A stretch of 64,000 bases of DNA, taken from positions 248,001 to 312,000 of the forward strand of contig NZ_JABVWW010000003.1 in the NCBI RefSeq assembly GCF_013350005.1, given 5' to 3'. The stretch's first letter is position 1. The number at the start of each line of letters is the position of its first letter. This stretch comes from Methylocystis silviterrae (GTDB lineage Bacteria; Pseudomonadota; Alphaproteobacteria; Rhizobiales; Beijerinckiaceae). Shown piece after piece: positions 17,464 to 32,288 of the stretch. Position numbers and translations under genes: made by a program. Below the pieces are notes generated by a model, which ran no database searches, was not told the origin of the DNA, and saw nothing but the letters and a program-made list of their open reading frames with translations.

Positions 17464-19019
17464 TCAGTTCGCGCCGATGAGGCGCGCTTCGAGTAGATCG
17501 ATTTTTGCGCGCCCATACATTTGGCGCTTCACGAGTTTGAGCTTTGTGATCTGACCTTCGGTCTGTCCGTTCGACCAAGCGGATATGATTGCGGCGCGCA
17601 CAGCAGCCCTGTCTTTTATGACGCCGTTAGCCAAGGACGCGACGAGACTCAATTTTGCGTGCTCAATCCAGGCGTCGAGCTCCGCATCATGCTTCTTTCG
17701 GATCATGGCGTGGAAAGCTGCGATGACGCTTCGCGCTTCGACGAGCAGCGGGACGCCGCTTTCTATCGCCGCAATCGTTAGGGATTCTGACTTGGAGAGC
17801 GTGTCGCGACCTGTCGTCATCAGCCGCGCAATGGTTCTGGGGGAAGGGACGCGGCGCAAGCTTGAAGTATCAGCTTTCTCGGCCCGACGCCGCCGTCCAG
17901 CCCATTCGGAAACAACCCGCAAACATCCCCGGAATCCCTGGCTCTTCAGACGCCGCCAAAGCTCGGAACCGCTGTGAAGGCCTGCGGTCCATTGCGCGTC
18001 GAGCCAGGGCAGATACGGCTCCAAAGAACTTTCGCGCGTTCGGAATACGTCTGAACGCTGGCCGCGCAGAATCCTGCGCACGAGTCCCCGGCTATGCCCG
18101 GTCTCCCGTACGATCTGTTTGATCGAGGCTCCATTCTTGGCGCGCACAAGGATGGCGGCGTCCGCATCCTCCCGCCGCAGATATCCCTCGTATTGAATAC
18201 GCTCAGCGGCGGTAAGCAGATCCGGATCGACGATCGCCGCGCCGATTGCGGAGCGGATTTGACGCATCGATTTGCGCACGGCGTCGAGGAAGGCATGGCT
18301 GGCGTTCGCCATCAGATGCCAGCGATCAGCGACCTGCGTCGCCTGCGGTAACGCCTTGGTGGCGGCCAGCGAATAGGAGCCGCCACGGTCACGCGCGACA
18401 ATGGCGATCTGTGGCTGAGCGGCCAGCCACGCCTGCGCGGTCGCGGGCTCCCTGTCGGGCAGAAGACGGATAGGCCGTCGTCGTTCGAGATCGCAAATGA
18501 TCGTTCCGTAACGCTGATTGCGCTTCCACGCCCAGTCATCGATCCCGACTACAGTAGGCTTGGGGAATGGTGGACAGCCTCGCCGGCGAACGGCCCTCAA
18601 CAAGTGTCGTTGCTTACCGGCAGCATTAACCGACGAGCGAAGTTGGCGGCAGGACGGCCGCCGAGGGCAAGTCCCAGATGATGGACAAGGCAGTCCAGTC
18701 GCGCTGTCCGGCGAGCCGACGGCGCCAGAACATCGGCGCTGAAGCGCTCCGTGAAAATTGCGCGACGACAGGAAGTAGAGTCGCATCGGAACCGGCGCGC
18801 GATGACAATGAGCCGAACCTGACGACCCGCCAATGGCAGATCGGCCAAGCGCCGGAGATAGTGGCTGTGGACGCGCTCAGCGATCGTCGCGCAACCCGGG
18901 CATTGACTTGATTTGCTCGTGTGGCGAACCGTGATGACCGTGATCGCGCCATCTTGGACGGCATTTTCAACGTGGAAACCGGGTGGCACAAAGGCCGCGG
19001 GGTGCAGACTACGAGGCAT
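17464..19019 (-). pseudogene. ISL3 transposase broken by one frameshift
   Basis: The N-terminal frame (starting MPRSLHPAAF at 19019) has the zf-ISL3 cysteine motifs CPGC and CDSTSCRRAIFTERF, and ends at LMLPVSNDTC. One base is missing near 18605, after which the second frame continues LRAVRRRGCPPFPKPTVVGI and DDWAWKRNQRYGTII (first catalytic Asp region). It then carries DRWHLMANASHAFLDAVRK, the KQIVRETGHSRGLVRRILRG helix-turn-helix and the C-terminal SNGQTEGQITKLKLVKRQMYG with the last acidic residue. Joined, it would be a full ISL3 transposase of about 515 residues. There is no obvious slippery heptamer, so a disabling mutation is more likely than programmed frameshifting. Confidence 0.85.
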
Positions 19020-20679: not shown

Positions 20680-23600
20680 CTACTTTCGAGTTACGCCTAG
20701 CGAGATTCGTCGATTTTTTGTCCGTCCCTCCTCAGTGTCATTGGTTGCGACCGGATGGCTTTCACCATAACCTTTCGTGTTGAGGCGTGAAGCGTCCACA
20801 CCCATTCTCGTCAACTCGCGCATCACCGAGTCTGCGCGCGCTTTTGACAATCTCTTATTTGCGCTCCGGGCGCCGACGCTGTCCGTATAACCGCCAATCA
20901 CGGATATGACGTTCGGATAGGCCGCCAGGATGTCGGCGATGTTTTTTAACTGATCCTGAAATGCGGCTTGCGGTTTTGCTTTGCCCGTCTCGAATTGGAG
21001 GCGGTCGAAGTCGAACCAGGTCACTCCTTCTATCTTCGCTTCACGCTCGAGAAACGCGAGCAGATTGGCCTCCATGCCGGAGCTCGGAACATTCAATATG
21101 AGCCCGCTGGGCAGCTTCCTGCTTAAAAATTTGGGAGGCCCGCCAGCCGCCGTTCTCGTGCTGGTCTCTTGTTCCCGGCCGCTTGGCTGGGCTTCCTCCA
21201 CGGCGGATTTGGTTTCCTTGGACGGAGTGGGAGCGTCTTGTTGCGCGGGCGGGGGCTCAATCCTCTCTACTCGAACCGACCCAGTCTCTCGCGGCGTGAT
21301 GAGCTTTGGCGCATAAGCGATAAGAAGCCAGCCAAGTGAAATCGCCATCGCCGCGGCCGCCGCCCATCCGACAGAGGCCCTCGCGTTCACGCGACCTTGT
21401 ACGAATATCCGACGGAGCCAACGAACTCCGCTAAGTCCTGCGCCGCGCCAAACGTATTTGAGCGCTTCAAGCAGCACCAACACGATCACGCCGGCGCCGA
21501 GCGTGACCGCCAGGTCGTCCAGGTGTAGGGGCCCGAAGCGGAAGAGATCGCTAATGGGGGGCGAAAGAAGCGTCAGACTCAGCATCGCCACGACGGCAAG
21601 GAGCACCCACGCAAGCGCCGTGTTTGGTCGACGGAGCGCTGTTTGCAGCGATGCGCTGAAGGTGCGGTTGACAAAGATCAGGCTGACGATCGCGAGGACC
21701 AATGAGAAGAAAGTTAACGCGCGCACTTCCGTCTCTGGCATGCCCCGCTTCAGCCCAACAAGGAAAATGACTGCAACAAGCGCGAATGCGAACGCTCCCT
21801 GTAAAAGGCCCCACGCGATCACGGGACTCGAGAATAGGGGCTCGTCGGTAGGACGTGGCGGGCGGCGCATCACATCGTCTTCCTCGATCTCGGCTTCGAA
21901 GACGAGCGAACAGACCGGGTCGATCACCATTTCCAGAAATGCGATGTGCATCGGCCCAAATAGGAGCGGCAGGCCAAACAACAGAGGCAATATCGCCAAC
22001 CCCGCGATGGGCACATGCACCGCGAAGATGAAACCCGTCGCCTTGCGCAGATTGTCGTAGATTCTGCGGCCAAGCCGGATCGCCTTGACGATCGAGCCGA
22101 AATCATCATCGAGAAGCACGATTGAGGAGGCCTCCCGCGCCACGTCCGTTCCGCGTCCGCCCATGGCAATGCCAATGTGCGCGGCCTTGAGAGAGGGCGC
22201 ATCATTCACGCCGTCTCCCGTCATGGCGACGATCTCGCCGTTTGCTTTGAGCGCATTCACAATTCGGAGCTTCTGATCAGGCAGGATTCGCGCAAATATG
22301 TTCGCTGTCCGCATGCGCTGCGCGAGCTGTGCCTCGCTTTTGCTTTCGAGTGTCTGTCCTGTCACGACTTCGTCGGTATTTAGACCCGCCTGGCGAGCGA
22401 TTGCCTTCGCCGTCGCTGGGTAGTCGCCCGTGATCATGACCACCCTGATGCCTGCCGACCGACACTCGCTCACGGCGGCCGGAACGGCTGAGCGTAACGG
22501 GTCGGCGAGTCCGACGAGCCCCAAGAATTCGAACGTGAAGTCTCGCTGCGAGTCCGGCAACGCTTTCTGCGCGAAGGATGCGTTGGCCACTCCCAGAACG
22601 CGCTGACCCTCCGCAGCCATGCCCTCAACGGACCGCTTCACTGCAGCAAACTCCGTCTCGTTCAATCGGCAGAGGGTAGCGATGGCTTCCGGCGCGCCTT
22701 TGGCCGCGACAACGAATTCCGGCGTGGCGTCGCTTTGCCAGACCTGTGACATCGCAAGGAGATCGGAACGAAGACCGTATGTCTGCAATAGTTTCCAATC
22801 TGGACCAAGCAGAGTTCCGGTCTTGGGCAAATGGTTCCGGCCGAAATCGTGAAACGCTTTTTCCATCGGATCGAATGGATCAGGCGCGCTGGCGAGAATT
22901 CCGAACTGGACCAGATGATCGAAGCTCGCAGGCATTGAGCGGGATATCTGGCCGGCTCGTAATGCCTCGCCGCCCTTGAGGCGTAGTTCGGCAATCGACA
23001 TCTGGTTCTCGGTCAGGGTGCCGGTCTTATCCGTGCACAAGACCGTCGCCGAACCCAGAGATTCGATGGCCGCGGCGCGACGGGTCAATACGCGCGCCCG
23101 CGAAATCCGCCATGCTCCCATCGCCATGAATACGGTGAGCACGACGGGAAACTCCTCGGGCAGCATCGACATGCCGAGCGCGATGCCCGCAAGCACCGCA
23201 TCGAGCCATCCTCCGCGCAACACGCCGTAGAGCAACACCGCCAAAACGCTCACGGCGCCTCCTGCGAGAGCAAACACCCCCACGAGACGCCGTGTCTGCG
23301 CCAGCAGACGCGGCGGCTCCGTTTCGACTGTGCTGAGCGATTGGCCAATTTTGCCGATTTCGCTCTGTGCGCCGGTCGCGATCACTTCGCCTATTCCGGT
23401 TCCGCGCACCACCAGCGAGCCTGAAAACACATATGGCAGGTCATCGCCCCCGGGCCGGCGGCTTTCGAGAGGCGCATCGGCGCGAGAGATCTTGCGAACG
23501 GGCGCTGACTCTCCCGTCAGCAGCGACTCGTCGATCTGGAGGTCCTGGCATTCGCTGAGCGCCGCGTCGGCGGGAACCCGGTCGCCTTCGCTGAGCACGA

Positions 23601-23985
23601 CGACATCGCCACGCACGACTTCGCGCCCAGCGATTCTCTTACGTACGCCGTCACGAATAACCAGCGCGCGCGGACTCGTAAGGTCGCGCAGCGCTTCCAG
23701 GACGCGCTCGGTGCGGGTCTCTTGCACCGCCGTGATGACGACCGACATTGTTGCGAAGACGAGGAGAATTAATGCTTCCTTCAAATCCCCCAGCAGCAAG
23801 TAGATCAGGCCGCCGCCGATGAGCAGCGCGAGCATCGGCTCGCGCAGGACCTCGAGAACGATTCGCAGCGGCGTGCGCCGTTCCGGCCGCGGTAGCTCGT
23901 TGTACCCCTCGCTCTTCAGCCTGGCCTGCGCATCTGCTTCACTGAGGCCGGGAGTCGAGTGGAGGGCTGAGGAAGCATCTGGCAC
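20680..23985 (-). CDS. P-type cation ATPase fused to a C-terminal OmpA domain
   Basis: This protein of about 1101 residues has a complete P2-type ATPase core. It shows a TGES actuator motif (IDESLLTGES), an M4 motif MLPEEFPVVL (about 276-280), the phosphorylated Asp in CTDKTGTLTEN (about 319), an MITGDYPATA segment and the hinge AMTGDGVNDAPSLKAAHIG. Ten helices are plausible. Instead of ending there, it adds an eleventh helix (about 872-892), a Pro/Glu/Thr-rich linker (about 893-985) and an OmpA C-terminal domain (about 987-1101: TWFDFDRLQFETGKA, IGGYTDSVGARSANKRLSKA, GYGESHPVATNDTEEGRTKN). The extra helix would place the OmpA domain in the periplasm to bind peptidoglycan. The ion is probably Ca2+ or another divalent cation (inferred). 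GTG 23985 is chosen for its strong GGAGGG site. Confidence 0.88.
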   Translation of the reverse strand: MPDASSALHSTPGLSEADAQARLKSEGYNELPRPERRTPLRIVLEVLREPMLALLIGGGLIYLLLGDLKEALILLVFATMSVVITAVQETRTERVLEALRDLTSPRALVIRDGVRKRIAGREVVRGDVVVLSEGDRVPADAALSECQDLQIDESLLTGESAPVRKISRADAPLESRRPGGDDLPYVFSGSLVVRGTGIGEVIATGAQSEIGKIGQSLSTVETEPPRLLAQTRRLVGVFALAGGAVSVLAVLLYGVLRGGWLDAVLAGIALGMSMLPEEFPVVLTVFMAMGAWRISRARVLTRRAAAIESLGSATVLCTDKTGTLTENQMSIAELRLKGGEALRAGQISRSMPASFDHLVQFGILASAPDPFDPMEKAFHDFGRNHLPKTGTLLGPDWKLLQTYGLRSDLLAMSQVWQSDATPEFVVAAKGAPEAIATLCRLNETEFAAVKRSVEGMAAEGQRVLGVANASFAQKALPDSQRDFTFEFLGLVGLADPLRSAVPAAVSECRSAGIRVVMITGDYPATAKAIARQAGLNTDEVVTGQTLESKSEAQLAQRMRTANIFARILPDQKLRIVNALKANGEIVAMTGDGVNDAPSLKAAHIGIAMGGRGTDVAREASSIVLLDDDFGSIVKAIRLGRRIYDNLRKATGFIFAVHVPIAGLAILPLLFGLPLLFGPMHIAFLEMVIDPVCSLVFEAEIEEDDVMRRPPRPTDEPLFSSPVIAWGLLQGAFAFALVAVIFLVGLKRGMPETEVRALTFFSLVLAIVSLIFVNRTFSASLQTALRRPNTALAWVLLAVVAMLSLTLLSPPISDLFRFGPLHLDDLAVTLGAGVIVLVLLEALKYVWRGAGLSGVRWLRRIFVQGRVNARASVGWAAAAAMAISLGWLLIAYAPKLITPRETGSVRVERIEPPPAQQDAPTPSKETKSAVEEAQPSGREQETSTRTAAGGPPKFLSRKLPSGLILNVPSSGMEANLLAFLEREAKIEGVTWFDFDRLQFETGKAKPQAAFQDQLKNIADILAAYPNVISVIGGYTDSVGARSANKRLSKARADSVMRELTRMGVDASRLNTKGYGESHPVATNDTEEGRTKNRRISLGVTRK

Positions 23986-23990
23986 GAAAA

Positions 23991-23996
23991 CCCTCC
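23991..23996 (-). promoter_or_regulatory. Shine-Dalgarno fixing the ATPase-OmpA start at GTG 23985
   Basis: GGAGGG lies five bases upstream of GTG 23985. The open frame extends 40 codons further to a TTG at 24105, but that has no good ribosome site and the extra residues are not ATPase-like. Confidence 0.65.
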
Positions 23997-24189
23997 GAGC
24001 GTTCGCTAACCCGCATTTTTCAAACTCGGCATGCGTTAGCCGACTTGTGACGGGACGATGATCGCAATGCCGAGCAGGCGTCACAAGCCGGAGAATCGTC
24101 GCCAAGTTGCGGCAGGCGGATGTGTAGCAGTCACAAGGGCAAATCGCGGACGCCGTCCCATACGATCGGTGTGACCGAGGGGACTTACC

Positions 24190-28869: not shown

Positions 28870-29439
28870 TCATGGCCTCATGATGACAGGCGTGCCGACG
28901 CTTACGCGATCGAACAGATCAATCACATCCTCATTCAACATGCGGATGCAGCCGTAGGAGGCGGCGGAGCCGATCGATGCGCGCATCCTTTTGGTCGTCC
29001 CGTGAATCGCCACCTGGAAGCGGCTGAGGGTAAGCGCGCGAGCGCCCATGGGATTGTTCGGCGCGCCGCCGCGAATAAGGTCCGGCAATTCCGGATGGTC
29101 GCGTTTCACAATCCTTGGCGGAGCCCAGTCGGGATTGACGTATTTACCGATAATCGTGGCGGAGCCGGACCATTCCTCGCTGCTCTTTGGCACGGCGATC
29201 GGATAGCGAATTGCGACGCCTTCATCCTCAACGAAGAAAAGTTTGCGGCGCCGCGCGTCGATGACAATCGTGCCCGGCTCGACGGACGATGAAAAGGCCA
29301 CCATATCCCGGGCGGCGCCGATCGACGGCAAGGCGGCGGCGCCAATGACGAGCGCCACGCCGACAAGGAGAGTGCGCGACAAACGAGCGAGACGTTCCGT
29401 AAGAGCCGGAGCGTGTATTTGAGACGATAAGCTACTCAT
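28870..29439 (-). CDS. L,D-transpeptidase (YkuD domain)
   Basis: This 189-residue secreted or anchored enzyme is predicted to make 3-3 peptidoglycan crosslinks or attach proteins to the wall. An N-terminal hydrophobic segment (about 20-40) acts as signal or anchor. The YkuD domain (about 55-187) contains IVIDARRRKLFFVEDEGVAIRYPIA and AIHGTTKRMRASIGSAASYGCIRMLNEDV, with the catalytic motif H-G-T ... S-x-G-C-I-R-M; the cysteine nucleophile is present. Length is normal for the small alphaproteobacterial class. Together with the OmpA-fused ATPase and the mltF relic it adds to a peptidoglycan theme in this region. Confidence 0.92.
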   Translation of the reverse strand: MSSLSSQIHAPALTERLARLSRTLLVGVALVIGAAALPSIGAARDMVAFSSSVEPGTIVIDARRRKLFFVEDEGVAIRYPIAVPKSSEEWSGSATIIGKYVNPDWAPPRIVKRDHPELPDLIRGGAPNNPMGARALTLSRFQVAIHGTTKRMRASIGSAASYGCIRMLNEDVIDLFDRVSVGTPVIMRP

Positions 29440-29696: not shown

Positions 29697-32288
29697 TCAG
29701 GGGCCTTGGTCGCGAGCTCTGATCCGCTTCGAACGACCTGCGGCATTGACGGACCAGAAGAACCATATCTTACCCACTTCCGTGGCCACGATATAGCCGA
29801 GGACGATAGCGACAACGGCGCTGATCTCAATCGCCGAGAGCGGCACGAAGCCGAACATCGAGCTCAGCGCCCCGAGGAAGGGGATAGCGAAGGTCGCGGC
29901 TGCTACCGCAAGCGTTGACCACAACAGCAACTGACTCGGGCTGCTTCGAAAAGCCGGCTTGTGGGTTCGCAGGACGAGGACGACCGCGAGTTCGGTCAGC
30001 AGCGAAATCATGAACCATGCGGTCTGGAACGTCGCCTCGCCGGCGTGGAAAACCAGGAGCAGCACCGCGAAGGTCAACATATCGAAGGCCGAACTGATCA
30101 GGCCGAAGACAATCATGAACTTCTGGATCTCGCTGATGCTCCAGCGCTGCGGATGTGAGACCCGGTCCGCATCGACATTGTCGCTGGATATCGCGATCGA
30201 CGGCACGTCGGAGAGGAAGTTATTCAGCAGGATCTGCTTGGCGGCAAGCGGCAGGAACGGCAGCAGCGGCGCCGCCAGCGCCATGCTGACCATGTTCCCG
30301 AAATTCGCGCTGGTGGTGATCGAGATGTATTTCAGCGTGTTGGCGAAGGTCCGCCGACCGTCCTCCACGCCAGAGCGCAACACGTCCAGGTCGCGGTCGA
30401 GCAGGATGATGTCGGCGCTTTCGCGGGCGACGTCCACCGCCGTCTCGACCGAGATGCCAACATCGGCCGCATGCAGGGCCGGCGCATCATTGACGCCGTC
30501 GCCGAGATATCCGACCGAGTGACCTGTCCGCTGCAGGGCGCGGACGATCCGCTCCTTCTGCTGGGGATCGATCTCGACAAAGAGGTCTGTCCGTGGCGCG
30601 AGATGCCACAAAGCCTCGTCCTTGAGTTTTACGAGCTTTTCGCCCGTGAGCATCGACGTTGCATCGAGGCCGACGGCCTTCGCCAGATGCGCCGTCACAT
30701 AGCGGTTGTCGCCGCTGATCACTTTGATGCGGATGCCTAGCCGATTGAGATCGTCGATCGTGCGCCGCGCATCCGCCTTAGGCGGGTCGTAGAAGACAAG
30801 AAAGCCACGAAAAGTCATCTCCCGTTCGTCGTCGCGGTCGTAGTCCGCCTTCACTGGAACCTTGCGGGTGGCTACGGCCAGAACACGGAAGCCTTCAACG
30901 CTTTTGGCCTTGAAGACTTTCTCCAGTTCCGCCCGCCGCTCGGCGTCCGCTGGAACCTCGACGCCATCGCGGTCCAATGATGTGCATATGTCGAGCACGT
31001 TCGAAAACGCCCCCTTGGTGATGAACAGGCGCTGTGACGGCGCTCCATCCTCCGCCACGACGATGGTGAGTCGGCGACGCATGAAGTCGTAGGGGATTTC
31101 GTCGATCTTTGCGGCGCCGCGGGTCGTTAGCCCAATGTCCTTGCCCGCAGTCACAATCGCTTCATCGAGCGGGTTCTCGATGCCGGTCTCGAAGGCGGCG
31201 TTGAGAAAGGCAAGCCGTCGCACCTCATCTGAAGGTTGGCTTCCGGCGTCGAGGACGTCGCGCAGAACAATGGCGCCTTCGGTCAATGTGCCCGTCTTGT
31301 CGGTGCACAGGATATCCATGCTGCCGAGGTTCTCGATGGCGTCGAGCCGGCGGACGATGACGCCGCGCTTGCTCATGGCCCGCGCGCCGGCCGAAAGGGT
31401 CACGCTGATGATCGCCGGCAAGAGTTCAGGCGACAGACCGACCGCGAGCGCCACGGCGAACAGCAGGGACTCGATCACCGGGCGGTGGAGCAACAAGTTC
31501 ACAGTCAGCACGAAGAGAACGATGACAATCATCACGCGGACGAGGAGATAACCGAACTGCCGCACGCCACGGGCGAAGTCGGTCTCGGGTTGGCGCGCCC
31601 CCAGCCGCGCCGCAATAGCGCCGAACTCGGTTCGGCGGCCGGTGCTCATGGCAAGGACCTTCGCCGTGCCGCTGCGCACCGAAGCGCCGAGAAAGACGGC
31701 ATTGGTCCGTTCAGTGATAGGCGCGTCGGGACGAACTATCCCGGCCCGCTTCTCGACCGGAAACGACTCGCCGGTCATGCTCGCTTCGCTGACGAGGAAG
31801 TCCTGCGCCTCGATCACGAGCCCATCAGCCGGGATTAGATTGCCCGCCGAGAGGAGGATGTGGTCGCCGGGCACGATCGCGCTGACCGGCGCCGTCCGCT
31901 CCACCCCATCCCGCACCACGCGGCACGTCAGCGCCAAGCGCTTCTTCAGTTCCTCGACCGCGGTGGACGCCCGATATTCCTGAAAGAAGCTGAGGAGCGA
32001 ACTGCCCAGGACGATCGCCAGGATGATGGCGGCGTCCACCCATTGCTGAAGCGCCAGCGAGATTGCGGCGGCGAACGCCAGGATGAGGACGAGCGGGCTT
32101 TGGAACTGGCGTAGAAGGAGGCGAAGCGCGCTCAGGCGCGGCGCATCCTCGACGCTGTTGGGACCGACGCTTAAGAGCCGCGCAGCGGCGCGATCGGACG
32201 ACAGCCCATCTGGACCCGACTCCAAAGCTGCGGCCAGCTCGGAAGCATCATGGCTCCAGTAGGGAGTTTCATTCGCGTCCCAGGTCAC
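29697..32288 (-). CDS. Magnesium-translocating P-type ATPase (MgtA/MgtB type)
   Basis: This 863-residue P3B-type ATPase is predicted to import Mg2+. The N-terminal cation-ATPase domain is followed by VEELKKRLALTCRVVRDG, the actuator motif ASMTGESFPVEK and an M4 region GLSPELLPAIISVTLSAGA. Next come ILCTDKTGTLTEG with the phospho-Asp and GYLGDGVNDAPALHAADVGISV. C-terminal helices contain ANFGNMVSMALAAPLLPFLP and LLNNFLSDVPSIAISSDNVD, typical of MgtA. The start is GTG 32288 after an AGGA site. It is the second large P-type ATPase within 12 kb but has normal architecture. No mgtC or magnesium riboswitch leader was recognised upstream. Confidence 0.92.
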   Translation of the reverse strand: MTWDANETPYWSHDASELAAALESGPDGLSSDRAAARLLSVGPNSVEDAPRLSALRLLLRQFQSPLVLILAFAAAISLALQQWVDAAIILAIVLGSSLLSFFQEYRASTAVEELKKRLALTCRVVRDGVERTAPVSAIVPGDHILLSAGNLIPADGLVIEAQDFLVSEASMTGESFPVEKRAGIVRPDAPITERTNAVFLGASVRSGTAKVLAMSTGRRTEFGAIAARLGARQPETDFARGVRQFGYLLVRVMIVIVLFVLTVNLLLHRPVIESLLFAVALAVGLSPELLPAIISVTLSAGARAMSKRGVIVRRLDAIENLGSMDILCTDKTGTLTEGAIVLRDVLDAGSQPSDEVRRLAFLNAAFETGIENPLDEAIVTAGKDIGLTTRGAAKIDEIPYDFMRRRLTIVVAEDGAPSQRLFITKGAFSNVLDICTSLDRDGVEVPADAERRAELEKVFKAKSVEGFRVLAVATRKVPVKADYDRDDEREMTFRGFLVFYDPPKADARRTIDDLNRLGIRIKVISGDNRYVTAHLAKAVGLDATSMLTGEKLVKLKDEALWHLAPRTDLFVEIDPQQKERIVRALQRTGHSVGYLGDGVNDAPALHAADVGISVETAVDVARESADIILLDRDLDVLRSGVEDGRRTFANTLKYISITTSANFGNMVSMALAAPLLPFLPLAAKQILLNNFLSDVPSIAISSDNVDADRVSHPQRWSISEIQKFMIVFGLISSAFDMLTFAVLLLVFHAGEATFQTAWFMISLLTELAVVLVLRTHKPAFRSSPSQLLLWSTLAVAAATFAIPFLGALSSMFGFVPLSAIEISAVVAIVLGYIVATEVGKIWFFWSVNAAGRSKRIRARDQGP

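What the first reader, a model, noticed from the sequence alone, without database searches (positions are those of the whole stretch)
20680..23985. P-type ATPase fused to a periplasmic OmpA peptidoglycan-binding domain
One uninterrupted frame carries a full P2-type pump, then an eleventh helix, a Pro/Glu/Thr linker of about 90 residues and an OmpA C-terminal domain. P-type ATPases end in the membrane or cytoplasm; an extra helix would put the OmpA domain outside, tethering an ion pump to the cell wall. This could sense wall spacing or stress, or fix pumps at sites of wall synthesis. An L,D-transpeptidase gene lies 5 kb away. I know of no described system of this kind, but cannot search.
Basis: partly seen in the sequence, partly recalled or inferred. 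Interest (0 to 1): 0.85.

Follow-up and report, generated by a model that had tools for sequence, protein, structure and literature searches.

The report
Ion pump with wall-binding tail
In methane-eating bacteria, an ion pump carries an extra membrane helix, a long flexible linker and a domain of a cell-wall-binding family, and the same kind of tail recurs on several unrelated metal transporters, which suggests a reusable device for tethering transporters to the wall.

Summary
The fusion is real. One 1101-residue frame (GTG 23985) holds a complete P2-type ATPase, an 11th hydrophobic helix, a 107-residue linker and an OmpA domain. It recurs intact at five other loci in four genomes of the genus (Methylocystis). 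Of 80 related loci kept, 4 are fused and 76 stop after TM10.

Its tail is a module: 23 places in 17 of 382 family genomes. Twenty are attached to transporters (one a fragment, one frameshifted): this pump, a second P2-type pump, Zn/Cd-type and Cu-type P1B pumps, FeoB, a TauE/SafE permease. One related FeoB keeps the helix and early linker but ends in LysM, another wall-binding domain. The residues that bind diaminopimelate in Acinetobacter OmpA are kept in 26 and 27 of 27 modules. One genome of each module-bearing genus (3 of 3) has methane monooxygenase; 0 of 19 other genera tested.

Best explanation: a transferable peptidoglycan tether for transporters. Periplasmic location and wall binding are inferred, not measured; structure prediction of the tail failed. 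Keeping pumps out of intracytoplasmic membranes is my boldest, least tested reading. My paper searches found no description. Stress sensing is untested; the L,D-transpeptidase neighbour is at 4 of 6 loci.

The parts
20680..23985 (-). CDS of the fusion protein, 1101 aa from GTG 23985 to the stop at 20680-20682
   Evidence: full-length homologues
23991..23996 (-). Shine-Dalgarno-like GGAGGG, 5 nt before the GTG
   Evidence: sequence printed
21445..23985 (-). P2-type ATPase core, residues 1-847, 10 TM segments by Kyte-Doolittle; TGES, DKTGT, KGAPE, GDGVND intact
21316..21372 (-). 11th hydrophobic helix, residues 872-890, Arg-rich segment before it
   Evidence: found by both hydropathy scales; helix 873-894 in the AF2 model but at pLDDT < 50
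20995..21315 (-). Pro/Glu/Ser/Thr-rich linker, residues 891-997, with the conserved EA..L..FLE stretch near its end
20710..20994 (-). OmpA (PF00691) domain, residues 998-1092
   Evidence: 65.6 bits, cut-off 27.2; 3td3 Acinetobacter Omp38, 77.7 bits
20881..20883 (-). codon of Asp1035, equivalent of diaminopimelate-binding Asp271 of Acinetobacter OmpA
   Evidence: PMC6572160 passages
20836..20838 (-). codon of Arg1050, equivalent of diaminopimelate-binding Arg286 of Acinetobacter OmpA
   Evidence: PMC6572160 passages
28870..29439 (-). neighbour: YkuD L,D-transpeptidase gene (near 4 of 6 P2 fusion loci, so probably not part of the device)
29697..32288 (-). neighbour: second P-type ATPase, 863 aa, without the tail (an internal contrast)

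Best explanation
The protein is a primary ion pump tethered to peptidoglycan. Shown from sequence: the P2 ATPase is complete and is followed in frame by an 11th hydrophobic helix, a long linker and an OmpA domain that keeps both peptidoglycan-contact residues. Inferred: the 11th helix carries the chain out of the cytoplasm, the linker (at most about 37 nm if fully extended) spans to the wall, and the OmpA domain grips diaminopimelate, so the pump is held at the wall-facing plasma membrane. The tail is a reusable module (helix + linker + wall-binding domain) placed on several unrelated transporters in three genera of this family. Its job is therefore most likely to fix where transporters sit, or to limit their spread, rather than to serve one ion.
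For: Intact fusion at six loci in five genomes, the window included, under purifying selection in pump and OmpA parts. The six fused P2 sequences are one clade (100/100) nested among unfused pumps; 76 of the 80 related loci kept stop soon after TM10. The module is on 20 transporter frames of several unrelated types in the 382-genome search, one of them a fragment and one frameshifted (frames read; frame check; tally). OmpA is above Pfam's cut-off in each of the 14 module-bearing transporter frames scanned. A hydrophobic helix with 3-5 Lys/Arg in the 15 residues before it lies between transporter and linker in 14 of the 15 transporter frames scanned, the LysM one included; in the fifteenth, the TauE/SafE permease, I found no helix beyond those of the permease. 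Linkers are of similar length, 74-119 residues in 13 frames. Asp kept in 26 and Arg in 27 of 27 modules, 23 of them different sequences. Two FeoBs, 67% identical through helix and early linker, end in OmpA in G114 and in LysM in G267. One module sits behind a lipoprotein-like signal (L158, by eye).
Against: No topology, binding or localisation was measured. AlphaFold2 gave no usable model of the tail (mean pLDDT 39.9 alone; below 50 in the full model), so the fold rests on profile matches. Hydropathy counts do not fit the expected helix numbers in every fusion: the second scale gives 9 for the window protein, and Kyte-Doolittle gives 8 where 9 are expected in the Zn-type fusions and 10 where 11 are expected in L116; Cu-type counts of 9-10 include a segment in the soluble part (expected numbers recalled). 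In Cu-type P1B fusions and FeoB-OmpA the OmpA domain is divergent, with loops lost or changed, so wall binding may be weak or lost there. Several other columns are as conserved as Asp and Arg, so their conservation shows an intact domain family rather than binding itself. The LysM match is modest (23.0 bits, cut-off 20.9), and a potassium-binding protein is among the PDB matches of that tail. Most relatives of this pump do without a tail, so it is dispensable for transport.
Confidence: 0.72

Rival explanations
1. Wall-coupled regulation: as in flagellar stators, engagement of the OmpA domain with the wall changes the pump's activity through the linker or 11th helix, so that the tail senses wall spacing or envelope stress.
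For: MotB/PomB precedent: peptidoglycan binding and the linker regulate ion conductance (abstract of PMC9093738). SERCA2b's 11th helix and luminal extension affect Ca2+ affinity (reference title only). A conserved EA..L..FLE stretch precedes the domain in most modules.
Against: One module on transporters with unrelated mechanisms (several P-type lineages, FeoB, TauE/SafE) fits a generic anchor better than allosteric control. No special constraint is seen on the 11th helix segment (pairwise dN/dS 0.18-2.7 on few changes).
Confidence: 0.15
2. The tail is an envelope scaffold that recruits another periplasmic partner (for example metal-binding or RND components), and its OmpA fold no longer binds the wall.
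For: Divergent OmpA loops in the Cu-P1B and FeoB modules. The plasmid-borne Zn-type fusion lies within about 9 kb of CusA/CzcA-type RND efflux genes and nikR.
Against: The two peptidoglycan-contact residues are kept in 26 and 27 of 27 modules, and LysM stands in for OmpA once.
Confidence: 0.1
3. Accidental read-through fusion, spread by duplication and without function.
For: Family-restricted distribution in the samples searched; two copies of the P2 fusion in G234; a frameshifted module-bearing copy (L117) and a fragment (L123) exist.
Against: Purifying selection, separate groups of fusions to different partners, the repeated extra helix and conserved contact residues.
Confidence: 0.03

Closest known systems
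MotB/PomB flagellar stator B subunit
   Same: An inner-membrane ion-conducting complex with a TM helix, a linker and a C-terminal OmpA-like peptidoglycan-binding domain (PMC9093738 abstract; sequence matches).
   Different: Here the tail is fused to an ATP-driven pump and to other transporters; helix 11 (VGWAAAAAMAISLGWLLIA) has no acidic residue, and I saw no sign of a flagellar role (not searched for).
LMCA1 (lmo0841) and SPCA1/PMR1-type Ca2+ P2A ATPases
   Same: Closest solved pumps to the core by sequence and in Foldseek. The Glu of LMCA1's TM4 PE motif aligns with Glu277 and the Asp of its TM6 with Asp689 (that these are ion ligands is recalled).
   Different: The window protein goes on past TM10. 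Its TM6 has Glu685 and Ile688 where LMCA1 has Asn, and the curated cut-off of the Ca2+ pump models is not reached (TIGR01522 431 bits against 798.3), so the ion is unknown.
SERCA2b
   Same: A P-type ATPase with an 11th helix and an extracytoplasmic tail (title in the reference list of PMC7313052; otherwise recalled).
   Different: Short tail without a wall-binding domain, eukaryotic, no wall (recalled); homology of the tails was not tested.
OmpA/Pal-type peptidoglycan-associated proteins (Acinetobacter Omp38, YiaD)
   Same: Same domain family and, for Omp38, the same diaminopimelate-contact residues.
   Different: Those anchor outer-membrane proteins or lipoproteins (recalled), not inner-membrane transporters.

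Membership tests
P-type ATPase, type II (P2) | Phosphorylation and actuator motifs DKTGT, TGES, GDGVND (motifs recalled) | tested here: met
   DKTGT319, TGES157, GDGVND590
P-type ATPase, type II (P2) | Cation_ATPase_N and Cation_ATPase_C domains, 10 TM core | tested here: met
   Both domains above cut-off; 10 segments before helix 11 by Kyte-Doolittle, 8 by the second scale
PMR1-type Ca2+ ATPase (TIGR01522) | Score above the curated equivalog cut-off | tested here: not met
   431 bits against 798.3
OmpA C-terminal domain (PF00691) | Score above the gathering cut-off | tested here: met
   65.6 against 27.2 bits
OmpA C-terminal domain (PF00691) | Asp and Arg that bind diaminopimelate | tested here: met
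   Asp1035 and Arg1050; 26 and 27 of 27 modules; role from PMC6572160 passages
OmpA C-terminal domain (PF00691) | Periplasmic location and peptidoglycan binding | not testable with these tools
   Inferred from helix count and homologues only
OmpA C-terminal domain (PF00691) | OmpA fold in a structure prediction | tested here: inconclusive
   AF2 confidence too low for the tail
MotB/PomB stator subunit | Acidic ion-carrying residue in the TM helix (recalled) | tested here: not met
   Helix 872-890 has no Asp or Glu
MotB/PomB stator subunit | Encoded with a MotA-type partner (recalled) | not tested
   No MotA-specific search was run

The most novel reading that the evidence does not exclude
Methanotrophs of this family carry a transplantable wall-tether module, with exchangeable wall-binding heads (OmpA, LysM), that keeps metal and ion transporters in the wall-facing plasma membrane and out of the pMMO-filled intracytoplasmic membranes. 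This would be membrane sorting by anchorage to the cell wall in bacteria.
Probability: 0.27. Interest if true: 0.92.

Novelty: new variant of a known kind. Interest (0 to 1): 0.75.

Why it matters
Peptidoglycan anchoring of an ion-conducting inner-membrane protein is known for flagellar stators; I know of none for pumps, and my paper searches found none. A tether that recurs on pumps of several lineages, an iron transporter and a permease would be a general way to position transporters. It makes a question testable: how do bacteria with extensive intracytoplasmic membranes keep metal export and import at the true cell surface? The module could also serve as an engineering part in harmless laboratory bacteria.

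Tried and rejected
Full-length match in L030: rejected as a fusion; its OmpA piece is a separate frame upstream of the ATPase. OmpA hits in other frames: L129 (G175) looks like a chance frame with an OmpA gene at its end, and L132-L134, L154-L156, L164, L167 and L168 read as ordinary OmpA-type proteins without this module (by eye). L,D-transpeptidase as a partner: rejected because it is near 4 of 6 P2 loci only; it is absent from the 8.1 kb upstream held for the other two (L006, L011, which printed matches above 35% identity). Structure prediction of the tail failed for lack of usable diverse sequences. Foldseek of the full model: the 50 rows shown of 653 were all P-type ATPases, with no OmpA protein among them. 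Viral contigs: no relative of the OmpA part confirmed. Paper searches for the fusion found nothing relevant: none listed; one, four and one paper listed, seen as title and start of abstract only. Searches were background searches seen as listings. The library is the open-licence PMC full text.
Full report
Observation. The reverse-strand frame 20680-24105 is open throughout, and Pfam finds Cation_ATPase_N, E1-E2_ATPase, Hydrolase, Cation_ATPase_C and OmpA in it. The start is most likely GTG 23985: GGAGGG lies 5 nt upstream, and in three of the four fused loci from genome contigs (L005, L007, L011) the homology further upstream is broken by a stop or a frame change. From this start the protein has 1101 residues; all residue numbers below use it. 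The P-type motifs are intact. Kyte-Doolittle hydropathy gives 11 segments; a second scale gives 9, but both find the last one, at 872-890. The N-flank of this helix (LRRIFVQGRVNARAS, four Arg) is basic, as expected for a helix leaving the cytoplasm; its C-flank has three Lys/Arg, so the charge evidence alone is modest.

Not an assembly slip. A pattern scan of the species-genome collection confirmed 386 relatives, of which the best 80 were kept. Four of these 80 are full-length fusions, named Methylocystis or Methylocystaceae (L005, L006, L007, L011); the other 76 end soon after TM10 (for L009 and L064 that script counted extensions of 50 and 87 residues, but the frames end right after TM10). 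They are 96-98% identical to the window protein over 1101 residues. Pairwise dN/dS is 0.08-0.21 in the pump and 0-0.57 in the OmpA part (one pair without any change); in the short helix-11 segment it runs from 0.18 to 2.7 on few changes, so nothing can be said there. A tree of the ATPase part puts the six fused sequences in one clade (100/100) inside unfused pumps, with L008 next (96/89): one fusion event for this pump.

The tail is a module. Searching 298 genomes of the family with the tail alone and reading long frames showed it attached to other transporters. With a 13-row profile (A2), 382 family genomes gave 24 rows at E <= 1e-26: 23 with the module (157-363 bits) in 17 genomes of three genera, and one ordinary OmpA match (G113, 97.6 bits). 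Of the 23, six are this P2 pump (G000, G226, G234 twice, G203, G272); five are on Zn/Cd-type P1B ATPases (G292, G203, G310, G212, and G277 as a fragment without the front of the pump); five are on Cu-type P1B ATPases with an HMBD domain (G200 twice, G146, G042, G187); two are on a second P2-type pump (G267 twice, one frameshifted); one is on FeoA-FeoB (G114); one is on a TauE/SafE permease (G126); three are not on a transporter (G114:C1, G309, and a lipoprotein-like protein in G310). Partner names rest on Pfam and NCBIfam for the frames scanned and on similarity for the rest. OmpA is above Pfam's cut-off in each of the 14 module-bearing transporter frames scanned, narrowly in some Cu-type ones (27.8 against 27.2 in L131). 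A further copy is annotated 'heavy metal translocating P-type ATPase' on a complete plasmid of Methylocystis rosea BRCS1 (WP_195838300.1). In the genus, where all candidates were scored, 11 of 39 genomes carry it at more than 160 bits.

Beyond the family. A 385-genome class sample gave only the window genome at E <= 1e-28. A 397-genome order sample and a 398-genome phylum sample gave, beyond the window, three proteins near 150 bits (G312, G640, G683; DUF937 by Pfam for L151, and by eye for L152 and L153) and then matches of about 105 bits and less. Of these weaker ones I read L154-L156, L164 and L167 (ordinary OmpA proteins) and left the others. In the large samples only about seven candidates a genome were scored, so misses are possible. 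In the module tree the P2 (100/99) and Cu-P1B (100/98) tails group by partner; most Zn-P1B tails group too (86/84), together with the tail of the lipoprotein-like L158; L120 falls outside and deeper branches are unresolved.

The head can be exchanged. In G267 an FeoA-FeoB protein (L160) aligns at 67% identity with the G114 FeoB-OmpA protein (L122) from residue 28 to 969, that is through the extra helix (911-929) and about 40 residues into the linker. It then ends in a LysM domain (23.0 bits, cut-off 20.9) instead of OmpA. PDB matches of that tail include a cell-wall-binding LysM protein (4uz2) but also LysM proteins with other roles, among them a potassium-binding protein. Two unrelated, commonly wall-binding domains behind one backbone are the strongest single sign that wall binding is what is selected. 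FeoB was present in 9 of 39 genus genomes; of the six frames I read (L122, L160, L174, L175, L177, L178), only these two show such a tail, and the other three frames are 664-678 residues long.

Wall-contact residues. Asp271 and Arg286 of A. baumannii OmpA bind diaminopimelate (PMC6572160, passages). They align with Asp1035 and Arg1050. Over 27 modules (23 family rows, the plasmid copy and three DUF937-type proteins; 23 different sequences) Asp is kept in 26 and Arg in 27; some other columns are just as conserved. In the Cu-P1B group a loop between them is lost, and FeoB-OmpA is also divergent, so binding there is less sure.

Topology logic. P-type ATPases and FeoB end in the cytoplasm (recalled), and 14 of the 15 transporter frames I scanned have a hydrophobic helix between the transporter and the linker. 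The TauE/SafE fusion has none beyond the permease's own; this would make sense if that permease already ends outside, which I did not test. Helix totals from hydropathy are not clean: Kyte-Doolittle finds 8 in the Zn-type fusions, where 8 + 1 are expected, and 10 in L116, where 10 + 1 are expected, and it adds a segment in the soluble part of the Cu-type ones. Linkers are 74-119 residues in the 13 frames measured.

What it does. The common factor among the partners is not the ion or the mechanism but membrane transport, so I favour positioning over regulation. A lead came from biology: methanotrophs of this group have stacked intracytoplasmic membranes (recalled). I asked whether module-bearing genera carry pMMO. 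One genome each of the three module-bearing genera has PmoA (3 of 3), and none of 19 other genera of the family does (0 of 19, one genome each; Fisher p = 0.00065). I took the first 19 non-bearing genera in list order; 21 of 43 genera stayed untested, and the test ignores shared ancestry, so one ancestral event could explain it. PmoA of G042 is 88.5% identical to one copy in the window genome, and that of G126 is about 71% identical to the other. So a wall tether might keep transporters at the wall-facing membrane. This is the boldest reading, not a result; 28 of 39 genomes of the genus lack the module at the level used, so it is not needed for life with such membranes.

Surroundings. Upstream on the same strand lie a cytochrome b561, a histidine kinase, YkuD and a second, tail-less P-type ATPase. 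Among the six P2 loci, YkuD and cytochrome b561 are found near the window copy, L126, L127 and L128 (the histidine kinase near three of these), but not near L125/L006 and L119/L011. The neighbourhood is thus not a fixed operon.

Structure. The full-length AlphaFold2 model is moderate in the pump (overall mean pLDDT 61.5) and useless in the tail; the tail alone reached pLDDT 39.9. Foldseek puts SPCA1 first and LMCA1 among the best, at TM-scores of only 0.36-0.43 by query length. The LMCA1 alignment keeps the TM4 Glu and TM6 Asp but has Glu685 and Ile688 for two TM6 Asn, so Ca2+ or another divalent ion is possible but unproven.

Known or not. No paper in the open-licence PMC full text matched searches for the fusion in a relevant way; most subscription papers and preprints were not searchable. 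The nearest working analogue is the stator subunit MotB/PomB (PMC9093738, abstract and outline only). I rate it a new variant of a known kind: known parts and a known principle, in a new and repeated combination.

Noticed in passing
L169 (G203:C20), L170 (G292:C11), L172 (G272:C2), L173 (G277:C5): P1B metal ATPases with N-terminal TPR repeats, then a helix and the pump, in some behind a signal-like segment (TPR by Pfam in L169 and L172, by eye in the other two): another apparent extracytoplasmic appendage on metal pumps in this genus.
   Followed up: partly
L174 (window genome, G000:C64) and L175 (G203:C35): FeoA-FeoB proteins with a long insert (Pro-rich stretches around a small globular-looking region; no Pfam match there in L174, L175 not scanned) inside the membrane part.
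   Followed up: no
L151, L152, L153 (another family of the order): DUF937-type proteins with a helix, linker and the same OmpA subtype: a possible source of the module.
   Followed up: partly
   Followed up: partly
window 17464-18786: ISL3-type transposase gene near the fusion; the M. rosea SV97 genome holds two copies of the fusion in different surroundings.
   Followed up: no
L124, L159, L165, L166: Small proteins with a hydrophobic helix and diverged versions of the tail but no transporter.
   Followed up: no
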